Source of the DNA: Pseudanabaena sp. lw0831
GTDB taxonomy: Bacteria; Cyanobacteriota; Cyanobacteriia; Pseudanabaenales; Pseudanabaenaceae
NCBI RefSeq assembly: GCF_016584665.1
Contig: NZ_BBJB01000016.1
Location: forward strand, 1 to 64,000
DNA length: 64,000 nucleotides
Direction of reading: 5' to 3'
Shown here: positions 3 through 11,067 of the stretch, in pieces
Layout of the letters: every line of letters begins with the position of its first letter
Numbering within the stretch: the stretch's first letter is position 1
Position numbers and translations under genes: made by a program
The notes under the pieces: generated by a model
Databases searched by the model: none
Told to the model about the DNA's origin: nothing
Seen by the model: only the letters and a program-made list of their open reading frames with translations

Positions 3-551
3 AGAGAGAAACAGCAACAACTCACCGAATTGCTTGAACAGGAAATGCAGGGCAAAATCGATTTGCGATATCTTGATGAAAGTGGCTTTTCTTTGACTCC
101 ACCGATTCCCTATGCTTGGCAAGAGAAAGGACTGGGTTTAAGCCTACCCAGTCAACGTAGTAAGCGGTTAAATGTCGTGGGGTTGATGAATCGAAACAAT
201 GACTTATCTGCTTATGTTTTTGAACGTAGTATCACCAGTGCAGTCATTCTCGCTTGTATTGATGACTTTGCTCGCCAATCTACCAAGCCTACTGTGATTG
301 TTATGGATAAAGCCTCTATTCACACCAGTCAAATGATTAATGAAAAACTGGAGGAGTGGAAAAGTCAGCAAGTCGAGATTTTTCTGTTGCCTCCTTATAG
401 TCCCCAGTTAAACTTGATTGAAATTTTATGGCGGTTTATGAAATATGAGTGGATTGAACTAAATGCATATGAATCTTGGGAAAGTTTAGTCTCATATGTT
501 GAAAAAGTTCTTCGAGAGTTTGGTTCAAAATATGTAATTAATTTTGCTTAA
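3..551 (+). CDS. IS630-family transposase, 5'-partial (C-terminal DDE domain)
   Basis: Catalytic domain of an IS630/Tc1-mariner transposase, which cuts and joins DNA at TA targets. The frame stays open to the left edge, so the N-terminal helix-turn-helix half lies outside the window. The DDE triad is visible: D in YLDESGF, D in VMDKASIH and E in LNLIEILWRFMK. The protein ends with YVINFA, as is usual for this family. A TTG at 30 is an internal codon rather than a convincing start. A cas2 scrap begins right after the stop with no recognisable IS end between, so the element may have inserted into, or recombined with, the CRISPR adaptation genes. Confidence 0.88.
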   Translation, partial: REKQQQLTELLEQEMQGKIDLRYLDESGFSLTPPIPYAWQEKGLGLSLPSQRSKRLNVVGLMNRNNDLSAYVFERSITSAVILACIDDFARQSTKPTVIVMDKASIHTSQMINEKLEEWKSQQVEIFLLPPYSPQLNLIEILWRFMKYEWIELNAYESWESLVSYVEKVLREFGSKYVINFA

Positions 552-598
552 CTACTTATATTGCTGATGATAAACGTCACCATCTAGTTTTTACATAA
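552..598 (+). pseudogene. cas2 relic with large internal deletion
   Basis: The codons from 557 read YIADDKRHH, matching the start of the larger cas2 remnant near 2895 (YDIADDKRR). They then join directly to sequence equivalent to the last cas2 codons and the following leader (AGTTTTTACATAATTT from 586). About 230 bp of cas2 are therefore missing. It begins immediately after the upstream stop codon, at the same cas2 position as the larger copy. It cannot encode Cas2. Confidence 0.6.
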
Positions 599-847
599 TT
601 TAATATTATTAAACTAGACAAAAACTTGGTTTAGCAATTATAGTTTTTGCAGCCACCTCCATAGGTGGCAAGAACCTTGAAAACCGCATTATTACGTTGA
701 CCTCTGGAGGTCGCGCTCTCCATAAGGATTTCCGCCTTTACAGTTATAGTCTTATTGCGAATTTAGCAAGCTTATTGACTATGTAAATGACCTATGGAGA
801 TCGACCCTATTAAAAGCTTTACTGTGTAAGCCTCAAAAATATGAGGG
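586..847 (+). promoter_or_regulatory. CRISPR leader 1
   Basis: This 262-bp non-coding sequence directly abuts the first repeat of array 1. It aligns without gaps to the 262 bp before array 2 with about a dozen mismatches by eye. It carries several related palindromic motifs: CCACCTCCATAGGTGG (653-668), GACCTCTGGAGGTC (699-712), TCTCCATAAGG (717-727) and GACCTATGGAGATC near 789. Position and conservation support a leader that promotes array transcription and marks the integration site. The role of the palindromes is inferred. Confidence 0.8.
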
Positions 848-1627
848 CTTTCACCCCAAACACCCCGCAAGGGGACGGAAACAGTAGAATTTGGATTCTT
901 CATAATTTTGTGACTTTGTAACCTTTCACCCCAAACACCCCGCAAGGGGACGGAAACACTTTAGCAGCAAGACTGTCGTGGAAGTGAGCGTATCTTTAGA
1001 CCTTTCACCCCAAACACCCCGCAAGGGGACGGAAACATATCGTTAGCAGTTTCCAACGAGATCTTGTTGTCCAAAGCCTTTCACCCCAAACACCCCGCAA
1101 GGGGACGGAAACGTACAGAACGCATCCCAAAGGCACTTGGCATTCAGGACTTTCACCCCAAACACCCCGCAAGGGGACGGAAACGAAGAAACGCAAAACA
1201 AAGCGTAGAAACAACAGTAGACTTTCACCCCAAACACCCCGCAAGGGGACGGAAACTGACAAGTGGAATCCGAGCGGGATGGCTTCAGTAAGCCCTCCTT
1301 TCACCCCAAACACCCCGTAAGGGGACGGAAACAAGAGTTGAGGAAATCAATCAATTGAGCGAGTTTTTGTCTTTCATGCCAAACACCCCGCAAGGGGACG
1401 GAAACTCTAGCCACGAACAAGCTTGTGCCCTCCAATGCCAGCTTTCATGCCAAACACCCCGCAAGGGGACGGAAACCAAAAAAACCGCACGCCAACATCG
1501 ATCCCAGCGTCGTCTTTCATGCCAAACACCCCGCAAGGGGACGGAAACCTTCGTATTTGATTACATTAAAATCTCTGAAAAAACAGAAGTAACTTTCACC
1601 CCAAACACCCCGCAAGGGGACGGAAAC
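848..1627 (+). CRISPR. CRISPR array 1: 11 repeats of 35 nt, 10 spacers
   Basis: Repeats start at 848, 923, 1002, 1078, 1150, 1222, 1298, 1371, 1442, 1514 and 1593, with spacers of 36-44 nt. Each repeat has a variable 15-nt 5' part, then the hairpin CCCC-GCAA-GGGG, then ACGGAAAC. Cleavage after the stem by Cas6 would leave an 8-nt ACGGAAAC handle, as in type III/I systems. The 5' part is CTTTCACCCCAAACA in repeats 1-7 and 11, and CTTTCATGCCAAACA in repeats 8-10. Repeat 7 has CGTAAG in the loop. Transcription should run rightward from the leader. Apparent frames through the array are artefacts. Confidence 0.98.
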
Positions 1628-1775: not shown

Positions 1776-2891
1776 ATGAACTCCCAATGGTCAAACAACA
1801 CCGAACTCGTCGGCATCACCCTGACCCTAAAACCACGCAACGATATTATCCTGCAACCCAACTACACCACAGGACTCCACGCATGGTTTCTGCATCAAGT
1901 CCGCGACAGCAACCCATCCCTCTCCGCCTACCTTCACGACGGACAATCCGAAAAAGCCTTTGCCATCTCACCCCTTAACGGCAAGCTCGAACCTAAAAAC
2001 CAAAACCTCATTGCCAAAGCCGACCATACCTACACATGGACAATCTCAGCCCTGTCTCAACCAGTATGTGATTGGCTAAAAACATGGTGCGATCGCCCAC
2101 CCTCCACACTCGACCTCTATGCAGGTAACTTTGCGATCGCGCAAATAGAAACCACCCTATCGCCCACCACCTACAACAAACTCTGGTCAGCCCCCCTCCC
2201 CCAGCAAGCAAACTTCACCCTCAACTTCCTCAGCCCCACCAGCTTTCGCCAAAAACAACATCACCTCCCATTACCCATCCCCACCAATATTTTCCATAGC
2301 TACCTTCGCCGATGGAACGACTTTGCACCCGAATCTTTCCCTCAAGAAGAATTTCTCCAATGGATCGAACAAATAATCTATGTCACAAATTACGACCTCA
2401 CCTGCACCAAAGTTGCAGTCGCTAAACAAGGCTATGTAACGGGATTTATCGGCAATGTCGAATTTGGCATCGATCGCAAAGCAAGCCAAAACTCAGATTT
2501 TGAGAGACTACTGTATGCACTGATTCAACTCGCACCCTATTGCAGCACAGGACATAAAACAACCTTCGGCTTAGGACAAACTAGACTGATTGGGAAAGAT
2601 GAAATAAGAAACGGGAAGAATGAAAAAGAACCAATCGCAACAACTCCAATTCAAGAACATTTAATGCAGAGAATTGCGGAACTAACCGATCTATTTCTGC
2701 AAACAAAAAAACGACAAGGAGGCGATCGCGCTCAGAACACCGCCACAGTCTGGGCAACGATCTTAGCAAGGTATGAACTAGGCGAAAGTCTCAAAGCGAT
2801 CGCGATCGATCTCGATATGCCCTATGAAACGGTCAGAAAATATGCCCAAGCTGCGCGTAAAGCGATCGGTGCTTTAGAAACAGTTCCATAA
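1776..2891 (+). CDS. cas6: CRISPR pre-crRNA endoribonuclease Cas6 with C-terminal helix-turn-helix
   Basis: Cas6 cuts the CRISPR transcript at the repeat hairpin to release crRNAs. The 371-residue protein has the RAMP C-terminal glycine-rich loop (TGHKTTFGLGQTR, about residues 255-270) and histidines in GLHAWFLHQV (H35, H40) as candidates for the catalytic base. The last 40-50 residues (ARYELGESLKAIAIDLDMPY and onward) look like a DNA-binding helix-turn-helix, an addition to the usual fold. ATG at 1776 is preferred to the in-frame TTG at 1770. It lies on the same strand between the two arrays and could be read from leader 1. No other complete cas gene is nearby. Confidence 0.93.
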   Translation: MNSQWSNNTELVGITLTLKPRNDIILQPNYTTGLHAWFLHQVRDSNPSLSAYLHDGQSEKAFAISPLNGKLEPKNQNLIAKADHTYTWTISALSQPVCDWLKTWCDRPPSTLDLYAGNFAIAQIETTLSPTTYNKLWSAPLPQQANFTLNFLSPTSFRQKQHHLPLPIPTNIFHSYLRRWNDFAPESFPQEEFLQWIEQIIYVTNYDLTCTKVAVAKQGYVTGFIGNVEFGIDRKASQNSDFERLLYALIQLAPYCSTGHKTTFGLGQTRLIGKDEIRNGKNEKEPIATTPIQEHLMQRIAELTDLFLQTKKRQGGDRAQNTATVWATILARYELGESLKAIAIDLDMPYETVRKYAQAARKAIGALETVP

Positions 2892-3152
2892 ATTTACGAT
2901 ATTGCTGACGATAAGCGTCGCCTCAAGTTATCAAATTTTCTTGAGGGGCATGGGCGGCGTGTGCAAGAAAGTGTGTTTGAGTGTTTTATAAGTTTAGATG
3001 ACATGAAAAAACTCCATGTTAAAATTAAAAAACGAGTAAAGCCTGAGACTGATAATGTGCGGATGTACTGGATTCCGTCGGATGCTTTGCCTAAGGCTCT
3101 AACTGTCGGCAGCAATCCGCCAGCACCTCCACCCAGTTTTTACATAATTTAA
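2892..3152 (+). pseudogene. cas2: cas2, N-terminally truncated
   Basis: Cas2 partners Cas1 in spacer integration. This frame reads IYDIADDKRRLKLSNF and then the typical FECFISL and KPETDNVRMYWIP segments, ending PPSFYII. It follows the cas6 stop (TAA at 2889-2891) in the same frame, so the start codon and first beta-strand (about eight residues) are missing and cannot lie upstream. GTG at 2961 would remove the conserved core as well. Its 3' end merges into leader 2. A functional Cas2 is unlikely unless translation starts at ATT 2892 or by readthrough. Confidence 0.8.
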
Positions 3153-3396
3153 TGTTATGAAACTAGACAAAAACTTGGTTTAGCAATTATAGTTTGTGCA
3201 GTCACCTCCATAGGTGGCAAGAACCTTGAAAACCGCATTATTACGTTGACCTATGGAGGTCGCTCTCTCCATAAGGATTTCCGCCTTTACAGTTGTAGTC
3301 TTATTGCGAATTTAGCAAGCTTATTGACCATGTAAATGACCTATGGAGATCGACCCTGCTAAAAGCTTTACTGTGTAAGCCTCAAAAATGTGAGGA
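3135..3396 (+). promoter_or_regulatory. CRISPR leader 2
   Basis: Same length (262 bp) as leader 1 and about 95% identical by eye, ending exactly at the first repeat of array 2. The palindromic motifs recur at the same offsets, including GACCTATGGAGGTC at 3248-3261. The first bases overlap the 3' end of the cas2 remnant, which shows that the duplicated unit included part of cas2. Confidence 0.82.
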
Positions 3397-5253
3397 CTTT
3401 CATGCTTACAACCCCGCAAGGGGACGGAAACTTTATTGCTTTGTTCAGATAGTCGCTTTTTAACAAATAGCTTTCATGCTTACAACCCCGCAAGGGGACG
3501 GAAACTTTTTAAAAGCATACTCACAGGTCAAATACGCGGGATCTGACTGGGAGCTTTCATGCTTACAACCCCGCAAGGGGACGGAAACCTTGGAACCTTC
3601 TGATGAAAGTGGCGTTTTTTTCAAAAAGGTTCTTTCATGCTTACAACCCCGCAAGGGGACGGAAACTGTGCATTACCATCATCACTGACGGTAATTTCAA
3701 CTTCTCTTTCATGCTTACAACCCCGCAAGGGGACGGAAACCTATACTTTTCCCGTCACTTATGATCGTGGCGATTTCCCAGACACTTTCATGCTTACAAC
3801 CCCGCAAGGGGACGGAAACACTGCAATGTCGTTGGCTTGACTAGAATCGATCTTTCCAGCTTTCATGCTTACAACCCCGCAAGGGGACGGAAACCATGCA
3901 GTTTGATTATTAACTTGCACGTCCGCTGGGCTCTTTCATGCTTACAACCCCGCAAGGGGACGGAAACAAATGAATCATTAACGTCTAAACCTTTGTGAGT
4001 AATCGCACTTTCATGCTTACAACCCCGCAAGGGGACGGAAACTTGACTTTGCGGTAGCCGTAACAAGCCCCACAACCAACTTTCATGCTTACAACCCCGC
4101 AAGGGGACGGAAACTCATCTACAGCAACGGATACTTTGGTTCTATCTGACGAATTGCTTTCATGCTTACAACCCCGCAAGGGGACGGAAACTTTTTTGCC
4201 ATGGATTGCCGAAGCATTCTATAATCTACTCCTTTCATGCTTACAACCCCGCAAGGGGACGGAAACTTTCCTCATGGATTCTACCTTTCCATTCCAGTTT
4301 TCTGCATTTCTTTCATGCTTACAACCCCGCAAGGGGACGGAAACTGCATGTTTTGCAGTATAATGAAGTTTTTAAGAGCCTCGTGCTTTCATGCTTAACA
4401 ACCCCGCAAGGGGACGGAAACCCTAAGGAATATTTTTTGTTGAGTGTTCTGTGTGTTCTTTCATGCTTACAACCCCGCAAGGGGACGGAAACTCCTTGTG
4501 GCAAATATCTAGAGCCTCTCTAGCAATGCGTTGCTTTCATGCTTACAACCCCGCAAGGGGACGGAAACCCCCAGCTTTTTCGCCGAGGTCATTGGGTGAA
4601 AGCGTCCCACCACTTTCATGCTTACAACCCCGCAAGGGGACGGAAACCCTTCTGGAGTGATCGTCTGCTGGGCGTTAACAGGGATTCTTTCATGCTTACA
4701 ACCCCGCAAGGGGACGGAAACATTGCAAAAAAGTCTATTTGCGCTTGAACTTTAATTGCCGCTTTCATGCTTACAACCCCGCAAGGGGACGGAAACTATG
4801 CTCCTTCTTCAGCTTTTCCGACAACAATTTGAACAACAGGTCTTTCATGCCTATAACCCCGCAAGGGGACGGAAACATCGTGTCAATCAATTGACCTTTA
4901 TTCATCGTCAGAATCAACTTTCATGCCTATAACCCCGCAAGGGGACGGAAACTGTCACAGCGTAAAACTCTCCGTTCGGAAGTCTTACGACCGAGTTTCA
5001 AACCCATAACCCCGCAAGGGGACGGAAACCCAACTGTTTCTAAATTAAATTTGAACGAAATATTAGCGCCCCGACATTTTCAAACCCATAACTCCACAAG
5101 GGGACGGAAATAAAGCTCGTCGCAAATATCAGCAGACCGAGTATGGTTCGTTTCAAACCCATAACCCCGCAAGGGGCGGAAACATTTGTTTTGCCATAGT
5201 TTTTCTTTTCGTAAGCATCCTTCACGCCTAAAACCCCGCAAGGGGAGGAAAAC
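3397..5253 (+). CRISPR. CRISPR array 2: 25 repeats, 24 spacers, degenerate distal end
   Basis: Repeats start at 3397, 3471, 3554, 3632, 3706, 3785, 3860, 3933, 4008, 4080, 4157, 4232, 4310, 4386, 4458, 4534, 4613, 4687, 4762, 4842, 4918, 4995, 5077, 5150 and about 5220. Spacers are 36-48 nt. The hairpin CCCC-GCAA-GGGG and handle ACGGAAAC match array 1. The 5' part is CTTTCATGCTTACAA in repeats 1-19, CTTTCATGCCTATAA in 20-21, and GTTTCAAACCCATAA or close in 22-24. Repeat 14 has one extra A, repeat 24 lacks one A of the handle, and repeats 23 and 25 are decayed. Decay at the right end agrees with leader 2 being the active end. Confidence 0.98.
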
Positions 5254-5365: not shown

Positions 5366-6232
5366 TTACCCCCTTACTGGGCGCATATTATAAGAAATGT
5401 CCACCTCCATAATTGGACAAGAATCAGACTGAATAATATATTCCAAATATCGATTTTGACTAGCACAAGCAATCACCATTCCTGCCGTCATCGACTTCGT
5501 ACCACCCGTATAGTCAGCAATGATTTTTGACTCGCTAATTCCTTTGCTTTCAGCATCAACGTAAATACTTTGAATCAACCTCTGAATATAGTTCGGATCG
5601 TCCACAAACTGCTCAGGTACAAGCAAGCTAACATCAGGAGCATTCTCATTCTTGATAACATAATCACCAAAAAAAATATTTGTCGTCATCAAACATCCCT
5701 CCTGAGCTAACCTTGCCACCAGCAGCTCAGCCTCATCCACCGACTTTTCCGTACAGATCAACCAACAATATTGATAGATTTGATTTTTACCTTCGTCCCA
5801 ATGAAACCGAATCGCCCGTTCTGCGGGAGAATCCCTTTTGGGACTCATGAACGCAATTAAGCCGACATAATCCCTTTTGACAGGTCGAACATTTGCGATC
5901 GCACCACCTTGAGGACTAAAAAACTTACTAAAATACTGACTAACTTTGAAAACAAAATCAGTACCATAAATTATCAAAAGCATCATCACAATGATGAATG
6001 CTAGACCAGTTATTTGAACCGTGCTTTTGTCCTTAATATTCAGAGAGTCCTTGATCAAGTCCGCCCCTGTATTCCACACCAAATCAAATATCCCATTTGC
6101 AATAAACGGTAAAACGATCAGTGCGACCACAATAAACAGGAACAAATTACGACTAGGATCGAAAACAGCACGCTTAAAAGGATTCATCTTCAAAAACTCT
6201 CTAGCAGACAATGTTGTTAGTGTATCCCTCAA
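5366..6232 (-). CDS. Membrane-anchored CARF-domain protein (putative cyclic-oligoadenylate-responsive effector)
   Basis: A 288-residue protein with two predicted membrane helices (about 31-50 FLFIVVALIVLPFIANGIFD; 71-90 TVQITGLAFIIVMMLLIIYG), followed by a cytosolic Rossmann-like CARF domain (about 121-280) carrying the signature DYTGGTKSMTAGM at 240-252. CARF domains bind cyclic oligoadenylates made by Cas10 in type III CRISPR immunity and switch on an attached effector. No nuclease domain is present, so the effector would have to be the membrane part, in the manner of Cam1-like proteins (inference). Start: TTG at 6232 follows a good AAAGGAG seven bases upstream; ATG at 6187 is the alternative. 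It is convergent to array 2. No cas10 lies in the window. Confidence 0.82.
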   Translation of the reverse strand: MRDTLTTLSAREFLKMNPFKRAVFDPSRNLFLFIVVALIVLPFIANGIFDLVWNTGADLIKDSLNIKDKSTVQITGLAFIIVMMLLIIYGTDFVFKVSQYFSKFFSPQGGAIANVRPVKRDYVGLIAFMSPKRDSPAERAIRFHWDEGKNQIYQYCWLICTEKSVDEAELLVARLAQEGCLMTTNIFFGDYVIKNENAPDVSLLVPEQFVDDPNYIQRLIQSIYVDAESKGISESKIIADYTGGTKSMTAGMVIACASQNRYLEYIIQSDSCPIMEVDISYNMRPVRG

Positions 6233-9895: not shown

Positions 9896-9946
9896 AATCC
9901 AAAAGATGAGAGGCGGCGCGAAGCGCCGCCTCTCATCTTTTGGATT
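9896..9946. repeat. Long hairpin, core GGCGGCGC-GAA-GCGCCGCC
   Basis: Perfect 24-bp arms (AATCCAAAAGATGAGAGGCG outward of the core) around a GAA loop. It lies between the stress-protein gene end and the gene fragment, and is the first member of the dispersed family when reading from the left. Confidence 0.95.
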
Positions 9947-10593: not shown

Positions 10594-11067
10594 GATGCTC
10601 TCCTTATTAAATTTGAGGACTGTTTACCTGAGTCGAATTTAACAACTCCGTATAAATAGTAATTTTAATAAGTTGGTAATTGATTCTTTGAATGAATTGA
10701 GTGAATTGATTGATTTCAATACAAAACGTAGGAAAAAGAAAGTTGCCTCCTATGAGAGGTGCTTCGACTCCGTTCAGCCAGCGTATAGCAATACAAGAAA
10801 TAGCTACGACAAATTAAAACCCAAATAAATAGAGGCGGCGTTTCGCGCCGCCTCTATTTATTTGGGTTTTATGCCCTAAGCAAAACTTGCATTGCTATGG
10901 ACATTTGGTTGCCCTGCTTCGCGATTCCACAAAGGATTTATCAACTGCGTTCCACGTAACATCAGTTAGTAATACATCTAGTTTTAGTACTTCGGCAGGC
11001 TCAGCAATAGGAAAATCTGATTAATGGATAAAGATTATAATGTTGAAAGACTAGACGACTAAAGCTT
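10594..11067. other. Intergenic region with hairpin and gene scraps
   Basis: It contains the hairpin at 10816-10870 and short frames with no recognised product. A 20-codon frame from an ATG near 10896 may be decayed coding DNA, but I cannot name it. Confidence 0.5.
10816..10870. repeat. Long hairpin, core GGCGGCG-TTTCG-CGCCGCC
   Basis: Perfect 25-bp arms starting AAAACCCAAATAAATAGAGG and ending in the complementary TTTGGGTTTT. Same outer AAAACCCAAA end as several other family members. Confidence 0.95.

What the first reader, a model, noticed from the sequence alone, without database searches (positions are those of the whole stretch)
2760..2891. Cas6 carrying a C-terminal helix-turn-helix
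The end of Cas6 (GESLKAIAIDLDMPYETVRK) has the spacing of a DNA-binding HTH after the RAMP glycine loop, which is where standard Cas6 proteins end. A processing nuclease that also binds DNA could regulate leader transcription or couple processing to it.
Basis: partly seen in the sequence, partly recalled or inferred. Interest (0 to 1): 0.5.

Follow-up and report, generated by a model that had tools for sequence, protein, structure and literature searches.

The report
Cas6 nuclease with DNA-binding-type tail
In many cyanobacteria an enzyme that cuts CRISPR RNA carries an extra gene-regulator-like domain, and about half of the gene copies examined have a lone copy of the CRISPR-repeat core in front of them, suggesting that the enzyme may control its own production.

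Summary
Window 1776-2891 encodes a Cas6 whose RAMP core ends at about residue 275. A poorly conserved linker follows, then a four-helix domain (residues 292-368) predicted as a separate sigma-region-4/LuxR-type HTH. This is a widespread cyanobacterial subfamily: 102 of 388 genomes match the tail, and 125 of 126 deduplicated close-core frames carry it, the other being frameshifted. The tail is better conserved than the core. It tracks one repeat type (CCCC-N4-GGGG-A..GAAAC): 81 of 99 genomes with the tail, 17 of 289 without.

New here: upstream of tailed cas6 genes often lies a solitary TCCCC-N4-GGGGA element, the repeat core with a free loop. It is in 53 of 107 distinct upstream regions away from arrays, against 0 of 40 tail-less cas6 and 2 of 812 other genes. 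It was in none of 20 leaders.

Best reading (about 0.5): an autoregulatory Cas6 that binds repeat-like DNA at its own promoter. An RNA hairpin in the mRNA is the main rival. The window's own genus lacks the solitary element although its HTH is conserved. The core function is known: cas6-2a of Synechocystis 6803 appears to be a member and matures CRISPR2 RNA.

The parts
1776..2891 (+). Cas6 with C-terminal HTH domain (371 aa from ATG; the ORF from TTG 1770 has 373)
   Evidence: TIGR01877 E 7.4e-22, PF10040 E 1.9e-20 and PF19308; AF2 model
1797..2600 (+). Cas6 double-RAMP core, about residues 8-275
   Evidence: VIA-align Z 23.3, rmsd 2.6, 240 aligned to 4c9d_B over model residues 8-272
1935..1937 (+). 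His54, invariant in 44 of 44; aligns with the His of Thermus Cas6B that I recall as catalytic His42
2601..2648 (+). linker, residues 276-291, low pLDDT, 22% mean identity among 44 sequences
2649..2879 (+). four-helix HTH domain, residues 292-368; basic loop KKRQGGDR 311-318
2790..2879 (+). HTH proper: helix 339-346, turn, putative recognition helix 350-368
   Evidence: sigma-4/LuxR structures among the matches
848..1627 (+). CRISPR array 1, 11 repeats; last repeat ends 148 nt before the cas6 ATG
580..847 (+). leader 1
   Evidence: 93% match to leader 2 (family D6)
3129..3396 (+). leader 2
3397..5029 (+). CRISPR array 2, 22 exact-core repeats, diverged copies beyond
2892..3152 (+). cas2 lacking its first residues, in frame behind the Cas6 stop codon
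   Evidence: TIGR01573 E 5.2e-14 from model position 6; not seen behind cas6 in the relatives printed

Best explanation
A bifunctional Cas6. The RAMP core matures crRNA from arrays with CCCC-N4-GGGG-A..GAAAC repeats. A flexibly linked sigma-4/LuxR-like HTH binds the DNA form of the same core motif. In many lineages this makes cas6-HTH autoregulatory: a lone TCCCC-N4-GGGGA palindrome upstream of its gene overlaps the -35/-10 region or the start site, so bound Cas6 would block or tune transcription. Repeat DNA and pre-crRNA would compete for the protein and match its amount to the CRISPR load. Shown by computation: the predicted fold, linkage, conservation, repeat association and upstream element. 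Inferred: DNA binding by the HTH, promoter position, repression and titration. In the window's own genus the solitary site is missing, so there the arrays' repeats would be the only such DNA sites.
For: HTH domain. Linkage: after deduplication, 125 frames with >=40% core identity have the tail and 1 lacks it (frameshifted L041); 21 frames under 35% identity lack it (undeduplicated 150, 6 and 21, five of the 6 being window copies cut by locus ends). Constraint: 44 sequences, mean identity HTH 66%, core 58%, linker 22%; in 10 Pseudanabaena genes pN/pS HTH 0.16, core 0.26. Repeat type: 81 both, 18 tail only, 17 motif only, 272 neither of 388 genomes; within the genus 9/3/1/13. Element: exact CCCC-N4-GGGG in 66 of 126 deduplicated upstream regions, 53 of 107 away from arrays; first set 43 of 75 versus 2 of 812 control genes; tail-less Cas6 0 of 40. 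In the 53 solitary sites T at -1 52/53 and A at +1 53/53, while 31 array consensuses have T 17, A 14 at -1; loop GCAA 6/53 versus 26/31 in arrays. TANNNT peaks 12 nt (17), 7 nt (11) and 8 nt (7) behind the site, smaller counts elsewhere downstream.
Against: No binding data. Structure matches are modest (VIA Z 6-7, Foldseek best E 0.28), a level common for small helical domains. Of 11 Pseudanabaena-like upstream regions only the window's has the core, and that is the last repeats of its array, although the genus keeps the HTH. Of six plasmid copies examined, two have an exact core within 200 nt and both are array repeats; the other four, Synechocystis 6803 included, have none. 60 of 126 upstream regions have no exact site. 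The conserved A..GAAA flank and constant orientation are what an RNA repeat or a retained terminal repeat would also show. In 4 of 53 the -10-like box is upstream of the site, 17 of 53 fit no simple promoter spacing, and a TANNNT also abuts the site upstream in 16 of 53. A genome-wide search with the -10 spacing found 36 places, 9 of them upstream of cas6-HTH, against 17 for the reversed control pattern.
Confidence: 0.5

Rival explanations
1. RNA-level autoregulation: the upstream element is a hairpin in the cas6 mRNA leader that the Cas6 core binds or cuts like a repeat; the HTH has another job.
For: The element keeps the handle-like A..GAAA flank (+5 A 44/53, +6 A 47/53) and one orientation, and three examples fold as RNA hairpins; in 4 of 53 loci a TAAAAT box lies upstream of it.
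Against: In 32 of 53 loci a -10-like hexamer stands 7-12 nt downstream of the element, which, if real, leaves the element outside the mRNA; loops are free; tail-less Cas6 have no such element (0/40), though many of those genes may lie inside operons and several are close relatives.
Confidence: 0.22
2. The HTH is an RNA-binding or docking module (clamping the short 4-bp repeat stem, or attaching Cas6 to a type III-D effector), and the upstream element is a remnant of the terminal repeat of an array that once preceded cas6.
For: In array-adjacent loci the last repeat itself sits at the same position (e.g. L072, L081, L082); the repeat stem folds as 4 bp; the window genome has type III-D genes on the contig of another array of this repeat.
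Against: A relic should lose stem and loop alike and keep the arrays' mixed base at -1; instead the loop differs from GCAA in 47 of 53 while T..A around the core is nearly fixed. The stems were selected by the search itself; of the 60 regions without an exact core 11 have a one-mismatch form.
Confidence: 0.16
3. Array binding as in archaeal Cbp1: the HTH coats repeat DNA within arrays and suppresses cryptic promoters or aids long transcription, without autoregulation.
For: Each repeat holds the core; the HTH is conserved in Pseudanabaena, which lacks the solitary site; sub-threshold NCBIfam HTH_Cbp1 match (E 0.08).
Against: Array repeats are not fixed for the symmetric T..A core (17 T, 14 A); does not explain the upstream element.
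Confidence: 0.1

Closest known systems
Cas6-2a (slr7068) of Synechocystis sp. PCC 6803
   Same: pSYSA cas6 at 62908-64011 (SGL_RS00950; equated with slr7068 by its place, not by a tag in the call): 39.5% identity over residues 8-368, ends in the same HTH; CRISPR2 repeats have the TCCCC-N4-GGGGA-CTGAAAC core (PMC3575380 section 5)
   Different: Published as a processing nuclease; HTH, helix-turn-helix and DNA-binding do not occur in that paper's main text; no exact upstream element
Thermus Cas6A/Cas6B (4c8y, 4c9d)
   Same: RAMP core, Z 22-23; His54 aligned
   Different: They end where this protein's linker begins; no HTH
Sigma factor region 4 / LuxR-type HTH (5fgm, 2h27, 6jhe, 3hug)
   Same: Among the best fold matches and the best profile match of the tail
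   Different: Here fused to a nuclease; no other sigma regions
Cbp1 of Sulfolobales
   Same: HTH protein that binds CRISPR-repeat DNA (PMC10883916, abstract and passages)
   Different: Three HTHs, archaeal; no nuclease domain that I recall
Solitary repeat units / Racrs
   Same: A lone repeat-like unit (PMC10651486, abstract and passages)
   Different: Those are encoded by viruses and plasmids and inhibit CRISPR-Cas; here the unit lies before the host's own cas6

Membership tests
Cas6 endoribonuclease | Cas6 profile match above curated cut-off | tested here: met
   TIGR01877 78.8 bits versus 58.65; PF10040 73.8 bits versus 25 for the window, and matched by 44 of 44 scanned
Cas6 endoribonuclease | double-RAMP fold with glycine-rich loop and catalytic His | tested here: met
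   Z 23.3 to 4c9d_B; G259, G265, G267 and H54 invariant. That H54 is catalytic is by alignment with a recalled residue; 259-263 has pLDDT below 50
Cas6 endoribonuclease | cleaves its repeat RNA | not testable with these tools
   For the relative cas6-2a, knock-out and complementation support it (PMC3575380 passages)
Sigma-4/LuxR-type HTH domain | profile match at curated cut-off | tested here: inconclusive
   window 24.2-24.3 bits versus 25.7; 28 of 30 tails at E<=0.01
Sigma-4/LuxR-type HTH domain | helical bundle with HTH at fold level | tested here: met
   5fgm Z 6.8 (59 aligned, rmsd 2.5), 6jhe Z 6.1 (52, 1.9); modest values, with unrelated cyclins at 6.1-6.4 in the same list
Sigma-4/LuxR-type HTH domain | binds DNA | not testable with these tools
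   no binding assay
Cbp1 | three tandem HTH domains (PMC10883916 passages) | tested here: not met
   one HTH only; NCBIfam HTH_Cbp1 12.9 bits versus 140
Type III-D CRISPR-Cas component | located with or serving a III-D effector | tested here: inconclusive
   same genome: Csx10 TIGR02674 408 bits on the contig of another array with this repeat (L168). Beside the window gene none was found among the six window ORFs scanned; the rest of the window was not scanned

The most novel reading that the evidence does not exclude
Cas6-HTH is a self-titrating transcription factor-nuclease: one protein reads the same palindrome as DNA (HTH, at its own promoter) and as RNA hairpin (RAMP core, in pre-crRNA), so CRISPR transcript load sets Cas6 supply.
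Probability: 0.35. Interest if true: 0.85.

Novelty: new variant of a known kind. Interest (0 to 1): 0.62.

Why it matters
How arrays and effectors share and regulate a Cas6 is, to my knowledge, poorly understood. A processing enzyme with its own HTH and a repeat-like site before its gene gives a concrete, testable circuit, with a knock-out already described in Synechocystis 6803 (PMC3575380), and it would make Cas6 the first crRNA nuclease known to me with a built-in DNA-binding domain.

Tried and rejected
Leader as target: a box ACCT[TA]GA is in 17 of 20 leaders but in 5 of 161 cas6-HTH upstream regions, and the CCCC-N4-GGGG element is in 0 of 20 leaders, so leaders and cas6 upstream regions do not share a site. 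Regulon: the pattern with -10 spacing has 36 places in 26 of 388 genomes; the reversed control pattern has 17 (my sum of the control columns). Comparing coordinates, 9 of the 36 lie just upstream of cas6-HTH; several are array repeats; the rest look like chance or are unexplained (L193 and L205 not followed up). G-U against mismatch substitutions in degenerate sites (by eye) were about even and do not decide RNA versus DNA. Strict repeat-HTH coupling was rejected: 17 of 388 genomes have the repeat without a tailed Cas6; profile A1 finds shorter Cas6 in 9 of these and nothing in 8. Cas6-Cas2 readthrough was considered and rejected as a conserved feature. Plasmid and phage collections: 46 plasmid records match, 16 of them over at least 80% of the query; one phage record matches in part. 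Papers: ten searches, of which I saw titles and abstract starts, and passages of six papers; in what I saw none names an HTH on Cas6 or the upstream element. Most subscription papers are not held, and Reimann et al. 2020 on the two Cas6 of Anabaena 7120 was not held (seen only as a reference title).

Full report
CHECK. The window ORF at 1776-2891 (ATG; the TTG at 1770 gives 373 aa) is Cas6: TIGR01877 78.8 bits and PF10040 and PF19308 above their cut-offs. Its AlphaFold2 core aligns with Thermus Cas6 (4c9d_B Z 23.3, rmsd 2.6, 240 residues, model residues 8-272). His54 is invariant in 44 sequences and aligns with the His of Thermus Cas6B that I recall as catalytic. The Thermus chains end at model residues 272-274. 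Beyond lie a low-confidence stretch (10-residue block means 61, 65 and 51 over residues 261-290, so the end of the core is included; below 50 at 259-263 and 280-283) and four helices at 292-310, 317-334, 339-346 and 350-368. Modelled alone, the tail has pLDDT 88 and pTM 0.77.

WHAT THE TAIL IS. The isolated tail matches Sigma70_r4_2 at E 2.7e-5, just below Pfam's cut-off; 28 of 30 tails scanned one by one, the window's included, match it at E<=0.01. A profile of 30 tails has the -35-binding domain of sigma factor SigL as its best PDB match (E 0.0085). Structure comparison lists sigma region 4 and LuxR-type domains among the best rows (5fgm Z 6.8, 2h27 Z 6.5, 6jhe Z 6.1), below an archaeal transcription factor (7.3) and DeoR (7.1), together with unrelated cyclins (6.1-6.4). 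The values are modest. Sequence and fold together make an HTH of the sigma-4/LuxR kind very likely; DNA binding itself is not shown.

DISTRIBUTION. In the genus, 12 of 26 genomes match the tail (in L013 only the tail frame is seen). In a sample of 388 genomes of the class, 102 match the 88-residue tail at E<=0.001, 99 of them at E<=1e-10. A scan of named genomes gave 214 relatives, of which the best 80 were kept; in the listing all 80 loci have a long Cas6 frame ending in the HTH (by eye; the 80 were ranked by similarity to the query). Among deduplicated frames in hand whose core aligns over 200 or more residues, 125 with at least 40% identity carry the tail, one (L041, frameshifted, tail in the next frame) does not, and 21 below 35% identity lack it. 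The undeduplicated count was 150, 6 and 21, five of the 6 being window copies cut by locus ends. The tail marks one Cas6 clade. It is more constrained than the core: mean pairwise identity 66% against 58%, linker 22% (44 sequences); pN/pS 0.16 against 0.26 in ten Pseudanabaena genes, 45 pairs, near-identical genes not removed.

REPEAT TYPE. Genomes with at least three copies of CCCCNNNNGGGGANNGAAAC: 81 of 99 with a tailed Cas6, 17 of 289 without; within the genus 9 of 12 and 1 of 14 (not corrected for relatedness). Of the 17 exceptions, 9 have shorter Cas6 frames by the full profile and 8 have no match. In the window genome this repeat core occurs on three contigs, one of them with two copies only; the contig of the second array carries type III-D genes (Csx10 408 bits, Csx7 248 bits).

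THE UPSTREAM ELEMENT. Looking for a possible operator, I found a lone repeat-like unit upstream of tailed cas6 genes. In the first 75 loci, 43 have exact CCCC-N4-GGGG within 200 nt; 13 of the 75 are array-adjacent, leaving 30 of 62. Of 812 other genes in the same loci (array-adjacent ones excluded), 2 have it. Adding genomes gave 161 genes in 126 upstream clusters: 66 of 126 have it within 300 nt of the codon for Trp5, and 53 of 107 away from arrays. Of 40 tail-less Cas6 genes, none has it within 300 nt; these were freed of identical upstream regions only, and many are Pseudanabaena. Among the 60 clusters without an exact match, 11 have a form with one mismatch in ten fixed positions (shuffle mean 0.06).

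ITS ANATOMY. In the 53 solitary sites the base before CCCC is T in 52 and the base after GGGG is A in 53, a ten-base symmetric core. In 31 array consensuses (not deduplicated) the base before CCCC is T in 17 and A in 14. The loop is GCAA in 6 of 53 solitary sites but 26 of 31 arrays. Downstream A at +5 and +6 are kept in 44 and 47 of 53. A TANNNT hexamer stands 12 nt behind GGGG in 17, 7 nt in 11, 8 nt in 7 and 2 nt in 6 of 53; upstream the mean is about one per offset, with 16 at the position abutting CCCC. By a simple rule 19 loci have spacing 11-12, 13 have 7-9, 4 have TAAAAT upstream of the element, and 17 fit none. In the first set, of the 32 loci (array-adjacent ones included) with a TANAAT 9-26 nt behind the core, 29 had spacing 11 or 12. 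If the hexamer is the -10 box, the palindrome covers the -35 region in Nostoc-like loci and the start site in Fischerella-like loci. Both are where a repressor would sit; this placement is inferred.

MECHANISM. My preferred account is autoregulation by the HTH acting on DNA, with repeat RNA as competitor. The RNA-hairpin account stays open because the A..GAAA flank and the orientation are kept. The window itself does not show the solitary element: its gene follows array 1, whose last repeat ends 148 nt before the ATG, and the ten other Pseudanabaena-like upstream regions (some of them the same or near-identical genomes) have no such core within 300 nt. So in this genus the tail must have another target or use; repeat DNA of the arrays is the obvious candidate. 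Of six plasmid copies looked at, two have an exact core within 200 nt, both array repeats, and four have none.

KNOWN BIOLOGY. The pSYSA cas6 of Synechocystis 6803 at 62908-64011 belongs here (39.5% identity over residues 8-368; the tail is present). I equate it with slr7068 (cas6-2a) by its place. In PMC3575380 (section 5 and passages) the cas6-2a knock-out did not process CRISPR2 precursors below 200 nt and accumulated longer ones in very abundant amounts; a C-terminally FLAG-tagged copy restored the pattern. Precursor abundance fits loss of processing, and would also fit loss of repression, but does not show it. Anabaena 7120 arrays were assigned to type III-D and I-D by Cas6 specificity (passage in PMC9938897). 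Cbp1 is a precedent for an HTH protein on repeat DNA (PMC10883916 abstract and passages). In the listings and passages I saw nothing describes an HTH on Cas6 or the upstream element; the library is incomplete.

VERDICT.

Noticed in passing
window 2892-3152: cas2 without its first residues and without an ATG, in the same frame directly behind the Cas6 stop codon; not seen behind cas6 in the seven Pseudanabaena loci L059-L065.
   Followed up: partly
window 30-879 and 3129-3428: IS630 transposase end followed by a cas2 remnant; the cas2-end/leader segment is duplicated at 93% identity ahead of both arrays.
   Followed up: partly
leaders in window 580-847, 3129-3396 and 18 leaders of relatives: 17 of 20 leaders share an ACCT[TA]GA box; by eye many carry leader-specific inverted or direct boxes around it.
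   Followed up: partly
window 5366-6232 (-): CARF-type protein (TIGR02710 E 5.5e-7, below cut-off) with a hydrophobic stretch near its N-terminus, beside array 2.
   Followed up: no
window 9896-9946 and 10818-10868: Two GC-rich 51-base palindromic elements, 73% alike.
   Followed up: no
L041: Cas6-HTH gene split by a frameshift, core and tail in different frames.
   Followed up: no
L193 (G335:C63:331) and L205 (G349:C11:1938877): Element-plus-hexamer matches not placed next to a cas6-HTH hit.
   Followed up: no
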